Part shown: positions 13,780 through 19,916 of the stretch, piece after piece
How positions within the stretch are numbered: position 1 is the stretch's first letter
Layout: the number at the start of each line of letters is the position of its first letter
Source of the DNA: Oscillospiraceae bacterium
GTDB lineage: Bacteria > Bacillota > Clostridia > Oscillospirales > QAMX01
Length of the DNA stretch: 64,000 nucleotides
Assembly: GCA_015067825.1 (NCBI GenBank)
Contig: SVLQ01000001.1
Location: 262,485 to 326,484 of the forward strand
Direction: 5' to 3'
The notes under the pieces: model-generated
Databases searched by the model: none
Seen by the model: the letters and a program-made list of their open reading frames with translations, nothing else
Told to the model about the DNA's origin: nothing
Made by a program: the position numbers and the translations under genes

Positions 13780-15231
13780 ATGCGCAAACTGTTTTCTTCT
13801 GCAACAACGAAACTGATTTCTGCCATTCTGCTCGCAGCGCTTTGCCTTGCGGTATGCATCAACACGCTGCCGGTTTGGCTCGCCAAAAAAATGATGGTTA
13901 CCTCCGCGGAAACTTTGCTTTCCGCGGAGGCTTGTAATGTTTCCGCCATTCTCACCACAGCTTCCGGTGAAAATGGCGGAACTGATCTTATGAACGTATC
14001 CGTCGCCCCTGCCAACCGAATTCTGTTGATTGACAGTACCGGTCAAATTCTGTTGGATACCAACACGGAGTATAACCGCACCGGCAGTTATATGCTCACC
14101 AAAGCATTTATGACAGCTTTGGACGGAGAAGCCGCATTTTTCTCGGATCTGACATCCGAGGCATTCCACTATTCCATAATGCTGCCGGCAAACATTCCTG
14201 TGGAAAACAGGCAAAGTGCTGTGCTCTGCATTACCCAAAGCGATACAAACGGTGCGGCCAAGATTGCCGAACTGCGGACAAAAGTTTTGTACCTTACAAT
14301 CTTTATGCTCGCGGCGTTTTTGCTTCTTGGTGTTTGGATTTTCCTGCGCCTGCACCGCAGCACCAAAACGCTGCTCTTTGGCATGAGTGAAATCCGCAAG
14401 GGAAATTTCAAATATCGGATCGATGTCAACGCCGATCAGGAGTTTGCCCAGATCGGCCGCGGTCTGAACGAGCTCTGCGAAACATTTGCCGCCACCGACG
14501 AACGCCGCCGTCGATTTGTTTCGGACGCATCCCACGAACTGAAAACACCGCTCGCCACCGTCAAGCTGCTCTCGGACTCGATCATTCAAACACCCAATAT
14601 GGACCGTGAGGAGATTGTTGAGTTTCTGACCGATATCAGCAACGAAATCGACCGTCTGACACGTATTAGCAGCGGTATGCTTTCGCTCGCAAAACTCGAT
14701 GATACATCTCGTGCCGTGCAAAAAGAAGCGCTCGATCTGGCGGCGGTCGCGGAAACTGTTTGCCGCATGCTCGCACCGCTCGCCAAAGCCTCCGGTTGCC
14801 AGATCCGTCACGAGTTGACACCAAAGATCTTTTTTGCCGCCAATTACGACTCTATCTATCAGATTTTCTACAACTTGATTGAAAATTCTATCAAATATGG
14901 CAGCAAAGGAAAAGAAGTGCGCGTGTTTTTATTCGAACGCGACCACAGCGCACACTTCATTGTCGACGACGACGGCGACGGCATTCCGCCAGAAGATTTG
15001 AAGCGAATCTTCGACCGTTTCTACCGCGTGGACAAAGCCCGCGCCCGTGCCACCGGCGGTACCGGACTGGGGCTTTCAATCGTCGCCTCTTCCGTGAAAG
15101 CCTGCGGCGGTACAGTCGAAGCACAAAACCGCCAGGGTGGCGGTGCCCGCTTCATCGTCCGTTTCCCGCTGCCCAACATTTCAGACAATACGAATGAGCC
15201 CGAATCAGACAAAGGGGGCGAAAACGCTTGA
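13780..15231 (+). CDS. membrane sensor histidine kinase
   Basis: Partner of the preceding response regulator. It has a transmembrane helix at about residues 12-33, an extracytoplasmic sensor loop (34-167) without recognisable ligand domain, and a second helix at 168-189. A HAMP linker follows (about 190-242, 'IRKGNFKYRI'). HisKA carries His252 in 'VSDASHELKTPLA', and HATPase_c has the N box 'FYNLIENSIKYG', G1 'DDDGDGIP' and G2 'GGTGLGL'. The 483-residue length is normal for the class. Its TGA overlaps the TTG start of the GerMN gene, so all three genes are one operon. Confidence 0.93.
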   Translation: MRKLFSSATTKLISAILLAALCLAVCINTLPVWLAKKMMVTSAETLLSAEACNVSAILTTASGENGGTDLMNVSVAPANRILLIDSTGQILLDTNTEYNRTGSYMLTKAFMTALDGEAAFFSDLTSEAFHYSIMLPANIPVENRQSAVLCITQSDTNGAAKIAELRTKVLYLTIFMLAAFLLLGVWIFLRLHRSTKTLLFGMSEIRKGNFKYRIDVNADQEFAQIGRGLNELCETFAATDERRRRFVSDASHELKTPLATVKLLSDSIIQTPNMDREEIVEFLTDISNEIDRLTRISSGMLSLAKLDDTSRAVQKEALDLAAVAETVCRMLAPLAKASGCQIRHELTPKIFFAANYDSIYQIFYNLIENSIKYGSKGKEVRVFLFERDHSAHFIVDDDGDGIPPEDLKRIFDRFYRVDKARARATGGTGLGLSIVASSVKACGGTVEAQNRQGGGARFIVRFPLPNISDNTNEPESDKGGENA

Positions 15232-16172
15232 AAGAACGGAAAAGGCTTTGGCTTTCTTTGACCTTTATTCTTTCGTTATCTTTGATTGTAATCACGGTAA
15301 TCATTTACTTTACGGTTGCGGCCAACGAAAAATATCGGGATCAACGATATTCGCTGTATTATTTAAGCCGCACCGATATACCGCAAATCACAAGCGAATC
15401 TCGTTATCTCTTTCCGGACTCCCCTGACGATCTGCCGAAATTACTCATCACAACATGGCTTAACGGCCCCGAAGAGGAGCGCTTGATCACGCCGTTTCCC
15501 GAAGATGTCCGCCTGATGAGCATTTCGATTTCGGACAGTTCGCTGGTGGTCGTACTCAGTGAGCAATACAATTCGCTCGACCCGTATATGCGCAATCTCG
15601 CCGACTGCTGTCTCTACCGAACGGTTTCGGCAATTCCCGAAATCAATGAGGTGATTCTCCGTGTCAGCGGCAGTCAGCAGTCGATCCCCACAGTTTTGAC
15701 TGCCGACCGCTTTATCACGGACGATCACTTTTTTGAGACATCGCGCCGAGAATTTACGCTCTACTATCCCGCTGCCGATCAAACCGGTCTGCAGACACTG
15801 CGTTACCCTTTTACAATTTATCCGGATCAGTCCCCTATTGAAATCGTCCTCGACTTGCTTGAGCACAAAATTTTCCCTTTGCACTCGAATGTCCGGCTTC
15901 CAAATCCGCTTGTCAACAATACTGCGGTCGATGACGGCATTGTCTATATCGATCTTTCAGCAGATTTTCTGATCGCACCGACGAACCCCGATAGCGAGAG
16001 CTACGAAGATTTTGTGGAAAACCGCATTTCCTATTTACAGGCAATCGTTCTGTCATTGTCCACATTGGATGATGTCGACAGCGTTATGTTCACTTTTGAC
16101 AAAACCGTTATGGGACAATACGGGCGGATTGACCTTTCACAGCCGCTGATGATTTCCCACTTTCAGAACTGA
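15228..16172 (+). CDS. GerMN-domain membrane-anchored protein
   Basis: TTG start overlaps the kinase stop (TTGA) and follows 'aaagggggcg'. One N-terminal membrane helix (residues about 8-30) anchors an extracytoplasmic part that appears to hold two GerMN-like units. The first unit contains 'LLITTWLNGPEEERLI'; the second contains 'SPIEIVLDLLEH' and 'DGIVYIDLSADFLI'. GerM of Bacillus is a spore-germination/sporulation peptidoglycan-associated protein, and related proteins accompany envelope-stress two-component systems in Clostridia. It has no lipobox Cys. Its exact role is unknown; sensing or wall interaction is an inference from the operon. Confidence 0.75.
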   Translation: MKERKRLWLSLTFILSLSLIVITVIIYFTVAANEKYRDQRYSLYYLSRTDIPQITSESRYLFPDSPDDLPKLLITTWLNGPEEERLITPFPEDVRLMSISISDSSLVVVLSEQYNSLDPYMRNLADCCLYRTVSAIPEINEVILRVSGSQQSIPTVLTADRFITDDHFFETSRREFTLYYPAADQTGLQTLRYPFTIYPDQSPIEIVLDLLEHKIFPLHSNVRLPNPLVNNTAVDDGIVYIDLSADFLIAPTNPDSESYEDFVENRISYLQAIVLSLSTLDDVDSVMFTFDKTVMGQYGRIDLSQPLMISHFQN

Positions 16173-16180
16173 CAGCAGCA

Positions 16181-16219
16181 AAAAGATCCTGAACGGTTAT
16201 TCGTTCAGGATCTTTTTTC
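16181..16219. terminator. bidirectional Rho-independent terminator
   Basis: 'aaaaagatcctgaacg' pairs with 'cgttcaggatctttttt' around a 6-base loop. It has A-run and T-run flanks and sits between the convergent GerMN gene and the SIS-domain gene. Confidence 0.9.
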
Positions 16220-16232
16220 ATGGCATCAAATC

Positions 16233-16883
16233 TTAAGCTTCGAAGAATGCGTCTTCAACCAGCGCGCAAATGAGATGATAGATAGCAATATGGCATTCCT
16301 GGACTTCCGGTGTCCACGAATTCGGCGCTGCCAAAACGATATCAAAGAGCTCGCCCATTCTGCCGCCGCCTTCACCGGTCAGCGCGATCGTTTTCATGCC
16401 TTTGTGCAGCGCAGCGATACCAGCCGCAACGACGTTTTTCGCGTTGCCCGAGGTCGAGATGCCGATCAAAACGTCGCCCTCTCTGCCGAGACCCCAAAGC
16501 TGCTGTGCGTACATCAGCGTGGGATCAGTGTCGTTAGCCACAGCAGACATAATTGCCTGCTGGGTGGTCAGATCGATCGCCGCCAGCGCGCCTTGCAGCT
16601 TGTTTGCCAGCAGTACGCCAAGGTCACCATAGGTCGAGAGTGCCATTTTGTCTTCTTCCGAAAGCGGACGCTCCCGCAGGAAACCTTTGAGGAATTCGCC
16701 GACGATGTGGGCGCTGTCGGAACTGGAGCCACCGTTGCCGCAGCAAAACACTCTGCCGCCCCTCGCATAACACTCACAGATCGCCACGACTGCCATTTCG
16801 ATCTGCGGGATCATATCGACCAGATGCGGATTTTTTTCGCTGAAACGCTTGTAGAGTTCTTCTTTCGAGATATATTCTTTCAT
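16233..16883 (-). CDS. SIS-domain sugar phosphate isomerase (GmhA/DiaA-like)
   Basis: 216-residue protein; the ATG at 16883 is chosen for its 'ggaaagggg' RBS. The SIS fold marks are 'VFCCGNGGSSSDSAHIVGEFLKGF' in pieces (phosphate-binding Ser-rich loop with GNGGS) and 'IGISTSGNAKNVVAA' (second phosphosugar loop), followed by 'IALTGEGGG'. These are the hallmarks of phosphoheptose isomerase GmhA and of DiaA. A heptose pathway in a Clostridium would imply a glycero-manno-heptose glycan (for example S-layer or capsule), but no heptose kinase or adenylyltransferase is nearby. It lies 22 bases after the deoxyhypusine-synthase-like gene. Confidence 0.8.
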   Translation of the reverse strand: MKEYISKEELYKRFSEKNPHLVDMIPQIEMAVVAICECYARGGRVFCCGNGGSSSDSAHIVGEFLKGFLRERPLSEEDKMALSTYGDLGVLLANKLQGALAAIDLTTQQAIMSAVANDTDPTLMYAQQLWGLGREGDVLIGISTSGNAKNVVAAGIAALHKGMKTIALTGEGGGRMGELFDIVLAAPNSWTPEVQECHIAIYHLICALVEDAFFEA

Positions 16884-16905
16884 GGCCGTCCCCTTTCCGG
16901 TACAC

Positions 16906-17889
16906 TTACGCCTGCGCACGTAGAGCCATCAGATTTTTGTAGAGATTTCTGAGCGAGATCTTGTGGTCAACGCAGAAATGCCAGCCCTTGCCCGCAACGC
17001 TGGTCGGACGGTTGACGATGTTCTTGCGCGGACGGTAGTAGTAATTCGGATCATCGTAGCCGATCTTGCAGCGGTAGTCGCCGAGGTCGATCAGGTCGAA
17101 GTTGCCAGTGGTAATGCGGAAGGTCGGGTAACCGAGGTTACGCGCGATCGACAGTGCCTTGAGGAACACTTCGGGGCCGATGACGCCGGAGCCAAAGTTC
17201 AGATAGACGCCGTTATCGAGGTGCGCGATCGAATGGCACATCTTATGGAAGTCGATGCCGCTGCATTTACCGATGGCGGCAAAGTCGACCGTCGGATGCT
17301 GGTGGATAATGTCGGTGCCGAGTGCGATGTGGTAGGTCGCGGGGATGCCGAGCTTCCAGGCCTGGTAGAGCACGCAGTCGTCGCGGTACGGGAATTTTTC
17401 GGGGTGATTGTCGATGTAAACGGCAAGGGATTCTCCGTAGCCGAGGTCCTTCGCAGCGCCCTGCTGGATCGCTTCGTTCATCCATCCGCCGGTCTCTTCC
17501 CACATACCAAATGAGCCGTCTTCGATAGCCGTCGGAACGTCTTCGCTCGTACCGCCGTTGTAGCAGAGCTCAAAGTCGTGGATGCTGCAGGCACCGTTGC
17601 CGGCGAGGTGGGTGATAAAGCCTTCCTTCATCAGCGCGATCAGGAAGCGGGAGAGGTTATTTTTGATAACGTGGGCGCCCATCGAGAGGATGACCGGCGC
17701 ACCGACCTCACGCGCCTTGATGATACGGGCGCAGAGCTCGTCGAAATCGGGATTTTCGTACTTTTCGACCGGATCGTCGAGGTTAAAAAGATTGTCAATG
17801 CGGACGAGGTCGCGGCGGTTCTTGACCGAATAGGTCGTGATATTGTCAAAAGCAAGCTGTCCGGGGATCTTGATGTTCTTGTCGTCCAT
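16906..17889 (-). CDS. conserved protein resembling deoxyhypusine synthase, unknown function
   Basis: 327 residues, soluble. The core 'VILSMGAHVIKNNLSRFLIAL', then 'THLAGNGACSIHDFELCY', 'GGTSEDVPTAIEDG' and 'FGSGVIGPEVFLKAL', recalls a bacterial family annotated as deoxyhypusine-synthase-like that I remember being found near heptose genes such as gmhA. Bacteria lack eIF5A, so a true deoxyhypusine synthase role is unlikely. The NAD-binding-like GNGA and GSGVIGPE loops suggest a Rossmann-type enzyme. It is upstream of and cotranscribed with the GmhA-like SIS gene, so a joint sugar-phosphate role is an inference. Family recognition is from memory and moderate in confidence. Confidence 0.6.
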   Translation of the reverse strand: MDDKNIKIPGQLAFDNITTYSVKNRRDLVRIDNLFNLDDPVEKYENPDFDELCARIIKAREVGAPVILSMGAHVIKNNLSRFLIALMKEGFITHLAGNGACSIHDFELCYNGGTSEDVPTAIEDGSFGMWEETGGWMNEAIQQGAAKDLGYGESLAVYIDNHPEKFPYRDDCVLYQAWKLGIPATYHIALGTDIIHQHPTVDFAAIGKCSGIDFHKMCHSIAHLDNGVYLNFGSGVIGPEVFLKALSIARNLGYPTFRITTGNFDLIDLGDYRCKIGYDDPNYYYRPRKNIVNRPTSVAGKGWHFCVDHKISLRNLYKNLMALRAQA

Positions 17890-17927: not shown

Positions 17928-17956
17928 ATTATACCATACTTCTTTTTATTTGACCA
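17928..17956 (-). promoter_or_regulatory. sigma-A promoter for the SIS/deoxyhypusine-synthase-like operon
   Basis: On the minus strand, TGGTCA, 17 bases, then TATAAT preceded by TGG (extended -10). It lies about 40 bases upstream of the start at 17889. Confidence 0.6.
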
Positions 17957-17988: not shown

Positions 17989-19440
17989 TCATCGTTCCGA
18001 TCCGTTTTCCAGCACGCTGATCGCTTCCAGGATCGTTTTTTCCGCAGCGTCGCGCCCGTGTTTTTCCAGTGCTGCGCGGTCGCGGTTGCCGTGCGTCAGA
18101 CATCCCGCACCGCCGATACAGCCACCGCTGCACGCCATGCCTTCGACGAAGTTTCCGTCGAGTACGCCACGCAGCTTCTTCAGAAGTGCCGTACGGCAGG
18201 CTTCGATACCGTCACAAGGTACCGGACGAAACTCCGTTTCGATTCCCTGCTCACTAAGGCTTTGCTGCACCGCTTCGGAAACGCCGCAGCTTCTGGCAAA
18301 AATGCGGCCGTAGTACGATGCATCGTCGAGCACGGTCTCTTCCATGCCGGAGATATCAATATCGCGGCTATCGAACAACGCCTGCAGTTCCTCGAAGGTC
18401 AACACGCTGTCGATGATCGGAGATCCGTCGGGCATACGGGTATGCGGTTCGCGGAACTCCAGTTTCTTCGCCGTACAGGGCCCAACGAAAACAATACGAG
18501 CCGTCGGATCGGTCTGTTTGATGTGTTCGCCGATGGCGGCTGCGGGAGAGAGATTATCGGAAACGTGTTCAGCAAGTTCCGGGAACTGCGATTTCACGTA
18601 TTTCACAAAAGCCGGACAGCACGACGTGGTCAAAAAGCCTTTCTCGACCAGCTCTGCCGCCTCGCGGATGGCGATCATATCGGCCCCGAGTGCAGCCTCG
18701 ACAATTTCGTCGAAGCCAAGTGCCTTGATCCCGCTGATGACCTGTCCGAGCTTTGCGTAGGTAAACTGCGTTGAGATCGCCGGAGCGACCACGGCATACA
18801 GCTTGCCGCCGCAACCTCGCAAACGCTTCTTCAAAAGATCGATGACCTCGAGGATATACGATTTATCCGAGATCGCACCAAACGGGCACTGGTAAACGCA
18901 GGCGCCGCAGGCAATGCATTTGTCGTTGTCGATCGCCGCGGCATAATCCTCGCGCATGGAAATCGCCTTGACCTTGCATGCAAGTTCACAGGGACGGCGC
19001 TGGTTTTGGATCGCGCTGTACGGGCAGACCTGCGCACATTTGCCGCATTCGATGCAGCGCGCTTTGTCGATATGCGCTTTCTGTTTTTCGTCGAACCAAA
19101 TCGCATCGCGCGGGCAAACGTCCTTGCAGCGATGGGCGATGCATCCCCGGCAGGCATCCGAGACTACGTGGCCGCTGACCGGACATTCGTCACAGGCAAT
19201 ATCGATGACCTCGACGATATTGGCGTTGTCTTTGTTACCGCCCATCGCGAGCTTGATACGCTCCGTCAAGATCGCCCGTTCTTTATATACGCAACAGCGC
19301 ATGGTCGATTTCGGACCGAGCGCGATCTTTTTGGGAATATCACTGATGCTGTCAAGCAAACGGTTCTCAAACGCCGCACGCGCAACCTCGCGCAGAACTT
19401 TGTATTTGATCAGCTGAACTTTGGTGTCAAATTTGTACAT
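17989..19440 (-). CDS. monomeric [FeFe] hydrogenase, group B-like, with ferredoxin-type N-terminus
   Basis: 483 residues from the second of two adjacent ATGs, which has 'ggag' at better spacing. The N-terminal region carries a Cys-rich segment (residues 83-110, 'CDECPVSG...CRGCIAHRCKDVCP' in pieces). Two 4Fe-4S ferredoxin motifs follow, 'CIECGKCAQVCP' and 'CIACGACVYQCP', plus 'CELAC' between them. The H-cluster domain has L1 'TSCCPAF' (272-278), L2 'PCTAKKLE' (321-328) and L3 'MACSGGCIGGAGC' (435-447), supplying the four H-cluster cysteines (274, 322, 437, 441). The loops, especially GGAG in L3, fit group B enzymes rather than classical bifurcating HydA. Physiological role (redox sensing or slow H2 turnover) is not established for the group. 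The maturases HydEFG are not in the window. Cotranscribed with the thioesterase upstream. Confidence 0.88.
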   Translation of the reverse strand: MYKFDTKVQLIKYKVLREVARAAFENRLLDSISDIPKKIALGPKSTMRCCVYKERAILTERIKLAMGGNKDNANIVEVIDIACDECPVSGHVVSDACRGCIAHRCKDVCPRDAIWFDEKQKAHIDKARCIECGKCAQVCPYSAIQNQRRPCELACKVKAISMREDYAAAIDNDKCIACGACVYQCPFGAISDKSYILEVIDLLKKRLRGCGGKLYAVVAPAISTQFTYAKLGQVISGIKALGFDEIVEAALGADMIAIREAAELVEKGFLTTSCCPAFVKYVKSQFPELAEHVSDNLSPAAAIGEHIKQTDPTARIVFVGPCTAKKLEFREPHTRMPDGSPIIDSVLTFEELQALFDSRDIDISGMEETVLDDASYYGRIFARSCGVSEAVQQSLSEQGIETEFRPVPCDGIEACRTALLKKLRGVLDGNFVEGMACSGGCIGGAGCLTHGNRDRAALEKHGRDAAEKTILEAISVLENGSER

Positions 19441-19468
19441 CATTCGTTCTCCGAAACAGGTTTTTGCA

Positions 19469-19858
19469 CTATGCCTCAAGCTTACGGCTGACTTTCGCCA
19501 TAAAGCGGTCGGCCGCAACGATAAAACGCTCGTGTGTGCCGTTGCCGACTGCGCCGGCAGCATCGCACATCGTCAGCGCAAATTCCAAACGTCTGCCGTC
19601 GATCGCGGTCAGCTCACAGGTACAGGAAACAGTCATACCGACCGGTGTAGCGGCGGTGTGGTTGATATTGGCCGCCGTACCGACCGTGGTCGTTCCCTCT
19701 TCAAGGTGCGCGGCCAGACATTCGCAGCAGCATTTTTCCGCCAGCGCAAGCAGCATCGGCGTAGCAAACACCGGCAGCGAACCGCTGCCGACGACTGCCG
19801 CCGTCCGGTCTTCCGTGACAAGCACTTCACAGGTGTGTTTCAATCCCACTTCAAGCAT
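19469..19858 (-). CDS. hotdog-fold thioesterase, FlK (fluoroacetyl-CoA thioesterase)-like
   Basis: 129-residue single-domain hotdog protein; the ATG at 19858 follows 'ggagg'. Thr33, Glu41 and His67 reproduce the spacing of the FlK catalytic triad (Thr42, Glu50, His76: +8 and +26), inside 'FATPMLLALAE' and 'NINHTAATP'. FlK hydrolyses fluoroacetyl-CoA, but most FlK-like genes in anaerobes have an unknown acyl substrate. The 25-base gap to the hydrogenase gene and shared promoter show an operon. The functional link between the two is not understood. Confidence 0.82.
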   Translation of the reverse strand: MLEVGLKHTCEVLVTEDRTAAVVGSGSLPVFATPMLLALAEKCCCECLAAHLEEGTTTVGTAANINHTAATPVGMTVSCTCELTAIDGRRLEFALTMCDAAGAVGNGTHERFIVAADRFMAKVSRKLEA

Positions 19859-19916
19859 AATTTCCTCCGTATATCGCGCACACAACGGTGCGATCACTCA
19901 AAATTTATTCGGATAT

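What the first reader, a model, noticed from the sequence alone, without database searches (positions are those of the whole stretch)
16233..17889. GmhA-like isomerase paired with a deoxyhypusine-synthase-like protein
Seen: two genes 22 bases apart under one promoter, one a GmhA/DiaA-like SIS protein, the other with GAHVIKNNLSRF, LAGNGACSIHDFEL and FGSGVIGPEVFLKAL. Known (from memory): a bacterial family annotated as deoxyhypusine-synthase-like occurs near heptose genes, yet bacteria have no eIF5A. Inference: the second protein is a NAD-dependent sugar enzyme in a heptose-like pathway, and the Clostridium makes an unusual heptose or related glycan.
Basis: partly seen in the sequence, partly recalled or inferred. 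Interest (0 to 1): 0.55.

Follow-up and report, generated by a model that had tools for sequence, protein, structure and literature searches.

The report
Deoxyhypusine-synthase-fold enzyme in sugar-phosphate module
Two adjacent bacterial genes make a sugar-phosphate isomerase and an enzyme shaped like the protein-modifying deoxyhypusine synthase; they appear to supply two steps of a four-enzyme sugar-phosphate pathway whose chemistry is not yet known.

Summary
In detail: two minus-strand genes, 22 bases apart, behind one promoter-like site. The SIS protein is GmhA-like, below GmhA cut-offs. The second protein ("DHSL") belongs to NCBIfam NF052581, "GSU2086 family" (377 bits, cut-off 250), which is given no function. 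PF01916 finds nothing in the genome, yet the predicted structure (pLDDT 90) has the fold of DHS and of ArgZ/AgrE (Z about 20). DHSL travels with an HldE-kinase-like PfkB protein and a HAD protein: in 59 relatives each is in 14 of 15 DHSL genomes and 0 of 44 others. SIS-HAD, HAD-DHSL and kinase-HAD fusions join the parts; SIS is the least constant partner. In this genome kinase and HAD lie on another contig, where a fused SIS half has decayed; the window pair appears to fill the gap. Most likely DHSL is an NAD-dependent, redox-neutral (epimerase-type) enzyme on a heptose- or hexose-phosphate (0.45). Some Clostridial loci carry sugar importers, ROK or LacI regulators and GH38 mannosidases, and no HldE adenylyltransferase reaches cut-off in the 59 genomes, so uptake and breakdown is at least as likely as glycan synthesis; Geobacter, Solidesulfovibrio and one Verrucomicrobial locus look biosynthetic. 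NAD binding, substrate and direction are unproven.

The parts
16906..17889 (-). DHSL: GSU2086-family protein of deoxyhypusine-synthase / ArgZ-C fold, 327 aa
   Evidence: NF052581 377 bits, cut-off 250; AF2 model pLDDT 89.9; VIA Z 20.8 to AgrE 6lrf, 19.6 to P. horikoshii DHS 7cmc
16233..16883 (-). GmhA-like SIS aldose/ketose-phosphate isomerase, 216 aa, with an insertion of about 25 residues
   Evidence: PF13580 E 1.8e-18; best NCBIfam PRK13936 phosphoheptose isomerase 147 bits, below cut-off 276; PDB GmhA 2xbl E 1.6e-35; GNGGS, H59, ND117-118, STSGN, H198, H203 present
16884..16905 (-). 22-base intergenic gap with ribosome-binding-like AAAGGGGA before the SIS ATG
   Evidence: sequence, by eye
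17928..17956 (-). promoter-like site TGGTCA-17-TATAAT, extended -10
   Evidence: consensus scan, 10 of 12 matches; 2 sites found in the stretch, 1.3 expected
16180..16218 (.). perfect hairpin flanked by A and T runs, bidirectional terminator-like
   Evidence: by eye; not listed by the scan

Best explanation
The pair supplies two of four steps of a sugar-phosphate pathway. The SIS protein interconverts an aldose-phosphate and a ketose-phosphate, as GmhA does. DHSL, a DHS-fold enzyme, most likely holds NAD and uses it in a redox-neutral way (oxidise, rearrange, reduce) to epimerise or isomerise the same sugar-phosphate. An HldE-like PfkB kinase and a HAD phosphatase- or mutase-like protein, coded together on contig C4 of this genome beside a GH38 alpha-mannosidase, do the other steps. 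Shown: family, fold, co-occurrence, fusions, the decayed fused SIS at C4. Inferred: NAD use, type of reaction, heptose or hexose substrate, and direction (import and breakdown slightly favoured in Clostridia).
For: Fold of DHS and of the ArgZ/AgrE C-terminal domain, for which NAD complexes are solved (titles of 6lrg and 1dhs). In 59 relatives (same handles) DHSL is in 15; the HAD in 14 of those 15 and 0 of 44 others; the HldE-type kinase (over 120 bits) in 14 of 15 and 0 of 44. In a second set the HAD is in 19 of 25 carriers and 0 of 16 non-carriers at E<1e-10. Fusions SIS-HAD (L024, L027, L030, L035), HAD-DHSL (L009, L010, L012, L016), KIN-HAD (L019). Fused SIS intact in 7 of 7 genomes with a type-B DHSL (40-45% identical to the window's; G015 partial), decayed or absent in 5 of 5 that have only the window-type DHSL (74% identity or more), each with the DHSL+SIS pair instead (Fisher p 0.0013; related genomes, not independent). 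Geobacter hldE, GSU2086, gmhA Tn-Seq values -3.1, -3.2, -3.7 for electrode growth.
Against: No residue-level proof of an NAD site: the profile alignment to DHS is local only over the N-half and the C-half alignment is unstable. Six of 25 further carriers lack the HAD (G139, G418, G421, G425, G370, G422). Five DHSLs of L016's phylum (L147, L148, L149, L151, L153) stand without module neighbours. No SIS was found in the stretches of L006, L008-L013, L015-L018 and L101. Importer and GH38 neighbours are in a minority of loci and their background rate was not measured. Solidesulfovibrio and G422 loci look biosynthetic.
Confidence: 0.45

Rival explanations
1. Biosynthesis: the module makes an activated heptose-like sugar for a surface glycan; DHSL adds an unusual stereochemical step.
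For: Geobacter hldE-GSU2086-gmhA; Solidesulfovibrio plasmid locus with a CTP_transf_like-PfkB fusion, DHSL, SIS, transketolases, a NeuB-family gene and pseF; G422/L154 with SIS, a CTP_transf_like-PfkB fusion and DHSL among membrane and flippase-like genes; glycosyltransferase-like genes beside the kinase in L099 and L106, by eye. Sub-cut-off relatives of the HldE adenylyltransferase exist in 18 of 59 genomes, among carriers G025 (83 bits) and G039 (61 bits).
Against: No HldE adenylyltransferase domain over its cut-off (181.5 bits) in any of 59 relatives; own genome best E 1e-4 over 51 positions. Sugar ABC importers in L007, L112, L113 and L119, with ROK or LacI regulators in the first three.
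Confidence: 0.27
2. DHSL is a class I lyase or aldolase that forms a Schiff base with one of its invariant lysines (K244 or K289) and cleaves or joins a sugar-phosphate.
For: K244 and K289 invariant in all 37 aligned rows, 36 distinct proteins; DHS itself uses a lysine (K329A entry 8a0f; the chemistry is recalled).
Against: DHS-fold enzymes found here have NAD complexes; structural equivalence of K289 with the DHS lysine was not resolved.
Confidence: 0.12
3. DHSL is a polyamine or amino-acid enzyme: a deoxyhypusine or homospermidine synthase, or an ornithine cyclodeaminase.
For: Same fold; local similarity to an ornithine-cyclodeaminase-type set (hhalign E 9e-9 over residues 49-114); four DHSLs touch PF01916 below cut-off (two plasmid ones at E 7e-5 and 1.4e-4; those of G421 and G480 at 6e-4 and 9.5e-4).
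Against: PF01916 absent from the own genome and 0 of 14 carrier genomes or records over cut-off; where DHSL carriers do have a PF01916 protein (G422, G425) it is another gene. WGK motif in 12 of 12 PF01916 controls, in 0 of 37 DHSL rows. TIGR00300 15 bits against 411. The recurrent neighbours are sugar-phosphate genes.
Confidence: 0.06
4. DHSL depends on the nickel-pincer nucleotide, as NCBIfam's name for TIGR00300 says of that cyclodeaminase.
For: Family name of a remote relative only.
Against: LarE (TIGR00268), the cofactor maker, is over cut-off in 13 of 59 genomes but in only 2 of 15 DHSL carriers (G025, G048) and not in the own genome.
Confidence: 0.02

Closest known systems
GSU2086 family (NCBIfam NF052581)
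   Same: 377 bits over residues 12-318, above cut-off 250; genomic link to gmhA- and hldE-like genes
   Different: No function is given for the family; no HldE adenylyltransferase over cut-off in the 59 relatives, and some Clostridial loci carry importers and mannosidases
Deoxyhypusine synthase (PF01916)
   Same: Fold: VIA Z 19.6, rmsd 3.3, 242 residues to 7cmc
   Different: No PF01916 match in the own genome; no WGK motif; bacteria are held to have no eIF5A (recalled)
ArgZ/AgrE C-terminal domain and LOR/SDH protein 3c2q (ornithine cyclodeaminase; NAD+ and ornithine complex 6lrg)
   Same: Best structural match: Z 20.8, rmsd 3.2, 220 residues to 6lrf; local sequence match residues 50-114, E 3e-4 to 6juy
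   Different: TIGR00300 15 bits against cut-off 410.8; no arginine genes noted alongside, by eye
GmhA sedoheptulose-7-phosphate isomerase
   Same: SIS fold family, phosphate loop, His/Glu/Gln/His positions kept against 2xbl (their metal role is recalled)
   Different: 136-147 bits, under equivalog cut-offs 209-276; insertion of about 25 residues
HldE kinase domain (rfaE_dom_I, TIGR02198)
   Same: Best NCBIfam match of the module kinase, 139-150 bits in three tested
   Different: Under cut-off 345; in Bacillota loci read here without a fused adenylyltransferase

Membership tests
GSU2086 family NF052581 | score over the curated cut-off 250 across the domain | tested here: met
   377.4 bits, residues 12-318 on profile 2-300 of 301
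Deoxyhypusine synthase | PF01916 over gathering score | tested here: not met
   no match at E<=0.001 in the own genome; 0 of 14 carriers over cut-off
Deoxyhypusine synthase | WGK motif with the catalytic lysine (place of the lysine in the motif recalled) | tested here: not met
   motif in 12 of 12 PF01916 controls, 0 of 37 DHSL rows. Whether K289 sits in the same place in space is unresolved
Deoxyhypusine synthase | DHS fold | tested here: met
   VIA Z 16.6-19.6 to the DHS entries shown
Deoxyhypusine synthase | acts on eIF5A with spermidine | not testable with these tools
   needs assay
ArgZ/AgrE-type ornithine cyclodeaminase | TIGR00300 or NF052231 over cut-off | tested here: not met
   15 and 16.8 bits against 410.8 and 1025
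NAD-binding DHS-fold enzyme | conserved NAD site | tested here: inconclusive
   fold match and invariant polar residues, but no residue-level structural superposition available
GmhA (D-sedoheptulose 7-phosphate isomerase) | equivalog score | tested here: not met
   136-147 bits against 209-276
GmhA (D-sedoheptulose 7-phosphate isomerase) | phosphosugar loop and His/Glu/Gln/His residues (recalled) | tested here: met
   alignment with 2xbl; SIS alignment A2
HldE pathway of ADP-heptose | HldE adenylyltransferase domain TIGR02199 over cut-off | tested here: not met
   0 of 59 genomes over cut-off; 18 of 59 have weaker matches
HldE pathway of ADP-heptose | GmhB phosphatase | not tested
   GmhB models were not searched; a HAD protein of another type co-occurs
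nickel-pincer enzymes | LarE in carriers | tested here: not met
   2 of 15 carriers over cut-off

The most novel reading that the evidence does not exclude
A heptose salvage route of gut anaerobes: GH38 enzymes free a manno-configured heptose from glycans or lipopolysaccharide, the HldE-like kinase and the HAD (acting as a mutase) give the 7-phosphate, DHSL epimerises it with bound NAD (for example at C6), and the GmhA-like SIS returns it to sedoheptulose-7-phosphate. It would be the first sugar enzyme of the deoxyhypusine synthase fold known to me.
Probability: 0.08. Interest if true: 0.8.

Novelty: new variant of a known kind. Interest (0 to 1): 0.52.

Why it matters
A curated but functionless protein family gets a concrete four-enzyme context, a fold, and a natural swap (window pair against a decayed fused isomerase) that names its likely partners. 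If DHSL is a sugar enzyme, a fold linked in the solved structures found here to polyamine and ornithine chemistry would extend to sugar phosphates, and gut and rumen anaerobes would gain an unrecognised sugar pathway. The question is directly testable with four proteins of 220 to 450 residues.

Tried and rejected
True deoxyhypusine synthase: rejected as a family assignment. Nickel-pincer cofactor: rejected by LarE distribution. Placement of the DHS lysine on K244 or K289: hhalign in local and global modes gave no stable alignment of the C-half, so left open. Sequence-profile search of the PDB listed ArgZ/AgrE but no DHS chain at E<=10; the fold comparison shows DHS. Phage records: no match; plasmid records: two. 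Literature (held library only): GSU2086 in 1 paper, a Tn-Seq table (passages read); 'deoxyhypusine synthase' with 'heptose' or 'phosphoheptose isomerase': 0 papers; 'nickel-pincer nucleotide' or 'pincer nucleotide' with cyclodeaminase terms: 0; two searches gave listings only and I opened none of those papers. Rarity: 6 of 299 genomes drawn from the own phylum and 9 of 115 from the phylum of L016's genome are over cut-off. Of the 37 rows one (L136) contains another (L016), so 36 proteins are distinct. L002/L038 and other sub-cut-off superfamily relatives were not counted as DHSL. The background rate of GH38, ROK and importer genes was not measured.

Full report
What is there. Window 16906-17889 (minus) encodes a 327-residue protein, here DHSL, and 16233-16883 (minus) a 216-residue SIS protein, 22 bases downstream. 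A promoter-like site lies at 17956-17928 (weak evidence by itself). Upstream is a hydrogenase-like iron-sulphur protein (17989-19563), and beyond the SIS gene a Germane-domain protein on the other strand (15228-16172); in the clustering (loci L001-L038 and the window) neither had a relative outside the window's own locus.

Identity of the parts. The SIS protein matches SIS_2 and, best among NCBIfam, GmhA models at 136-147 bits, below their equivalog cut-offs; its closest solved relatives are GmhA structures, E about 1e-35. The phosphosugar loop and the residues recalled as metal or catalytic in GmhA are kept. DHSL is over the cut-off of NF052581, the GSU2086 family (377 bits against 250), with no Pfam family reaching cut-off. 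PF01916 finds nothing in the own genome and is over cut-off in 0 of 14 carrier genomes or records; four DHSLs elsewhere touch it below cut-off. Two carriers of L016's phylum, G422 and G425, do hold a PF01916 protein over cut-off, but as another gene on another contig. A 26-sequence alignment gave a model with mean pLDDT 89.9 and pTM 0.90. Foldseek and VIA-align place it with ArgZ/AgrE C-terminal domains (Z 20.8, rmsd 3.2, 220 aligned), LOR/SDH 3c2q (19.7) and deoxyhypusine synthases (16.6-19.6 in the rows shown). So it belongs to that fold group and to the GSU2086 family, but not to DHS or the cyclodeaminases as curated.

A four-part module. Around homologues lie an HldE-kinase-like PfkB protein (TIGR02198 139-150 bits in three tested, cut-off 345) and a HAD protein with a DFDGT motif. 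In 59 relatives DHSL is in 15 (13 over cut-off, 2 partial at contig ends). The HAD (E<1e-5) is in 14 of these 15 and in 0 of the other 44; the kinase (over 120 bits) in 14 of 15, and in the other 44 nothing exceeds 50 bits. In a second set chosen for DHSL state, the HAD is in 19 of 25 carriers and, at E<1e-10, 0 of 16 non-carriers (one generic hit at 2.7e-6, G376). Carriers without it are G139, G418, G421, G425, G370 and G422. Domain fusions join the same parts: SIS-HAD, HAD-DHSL, KIN-HAD, and a CTP_transf_like-PfkB protein stands beside DHSL in Solidesulfovibrio and in G422. SIS is the least constant partner: none was found in the stretches of L006, L008-L013, L015-L018 and L101 (some of these are short).

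The own genome. It has one DHSL over cut-off, in the window. Kinase and HAD lie together at C4:115381-117188, beside a GH38 alpha-mannosidase. The kinase is 69-74% and the HAD 78-81% identical to those of G004, G009, G010 and G014. In the 7 of 59 relatives with a type-B DHSL (40-45% identical to the window's; G015 partial) and a fused SIS-HAD, the SIS half is intact (G004, G009, G010, G015, G025, G039, G048). In G000 and G014 it has lost the GNGGS loop, the histidine and the ND motif, and in G006, G013 and G018 no SIS half is left (G018's ORF has an unrelated N-terminal extension); these five have only the window-type DHSL, each beside a stand-alone SIS. 7 of 7 against 0 of 5 gives Fisher p 0.0013, but the genomes are related and the losses may be few events. 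G004 and G009 hold both types, and G010 too (its window-type copy lies at a contig end). The simplest reading: the window-type pair was gained and the old DHSL and isomerase were then lost, while the old kinase and HAD stayed. This ties the four proteins to one pathway better than adjacency alone.

Direction. For breakdown: L007 reads importer (RbsA-, RbsC-, SBP-like), ROK, kinase, HAD, DHSL, SIS (permease and ROK by Pfam); L112 has ROK, all four parts and an importer; L113 a LacI regulator and importer-like genes by eye; the Chloroflexota plasmid locus an annotated importer, deoC and Gfo/Idh genes. GH38 genes are near in 8 genomes (G000, G004, G009, G014 and those of L011, L017, L018, L020) of the 37 distinct genomes or records whose stretches were scanned (Pfam-confirmed for G000 and for G004, L011, L017, L018, L020; G009 and G014 by similarity to the G000 gene); in G000, G009 and G014 they lie by the kinase-HAD locus. 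No background rate was measured. No HldE adenylyltransferase is over cut-off in 59 genomes. For synthesis: Geobacter sulfurreducens has hldE-GSU2086-gmhA, with similar Tn-Seq electrode-growth values -3.1, -3.2, -3.7 (PMC5585712, passages); the Solidesulfovibrio plasmid locus and L154 sit among surface-sugar-like genes. The module may serve both.

Mechanism. NAD complexes are solved for two members of the fold group (titles 6lrg, 1dhs). Across 37 aligned rows (36 distinct proteins) the invariant residues include R25, H73, N98, H104, D105, E107, H187, D193, H198, D213, K244, N251, D265, Y283, Y284, R286 and K289. An enzyme-bound NAD cycle (oxidise, rearrange, reduce) on a sugar-phosphate is the most economical reaction (0.45). 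A lysine-based lyase is the chief chemical rival. The nickel-pincer idea fails on LarE (2 of 15 carriers).

Limits. The NAD site is inferred from fold. Five DHSLs of L016's phylum without neighbours (L147, L148, L149, L151, L153) show that DHSL can stand without the adjacent module. No substrate is known. In the searches I saw no paper on the function of this family; papers outside the held library were not searched.

Noticed in passing
G000:C4:28312-28545, L002 526-1965 (-); also L038 529-1740 (-): A second, remote relative of the same superfamily (400-480 aa), no Pfam hit for the L002 copy, divergent from a sialidase-like ORF (by eye).
   Followed up: partly
L099 11410-12738 (-): SIS-HAD fusion of the own genome whose SIS half has lost its active-site motifs.
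   Followed up: yes
L147, L148, L149, L151: Long-form DHSL (366-378 aa, with an extra insertion) standing without kinase, HAD or SIS neighbours in the phylum of L016's genome.
   Followed up: partly
window 19469-19897 (-): FlK-like fluoroacetyl-CoA-specific thioesterase family protein (PF22636, E 1.7e-35), just upstream of the hydrogenase-like gene.
   Followed up: no
window 16590-16670 (SIS residues 72-98): Insertion of about 25 residues shared by most stand-alone SIS proteins of this group and absent from the plasmid-borne SIS partners of L119 and L120.
   Followed up: no
L120 (NZ_CP026539.1 74521-93444): Solidesulfovibrio plasmid locus with DHSL, SIS, kinase-nucleotidyltransferase fusion, two transketolase genes, three radical SAM genes and nonulosonic-acid genes: an unusual glycan locus.
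   Followed up: no
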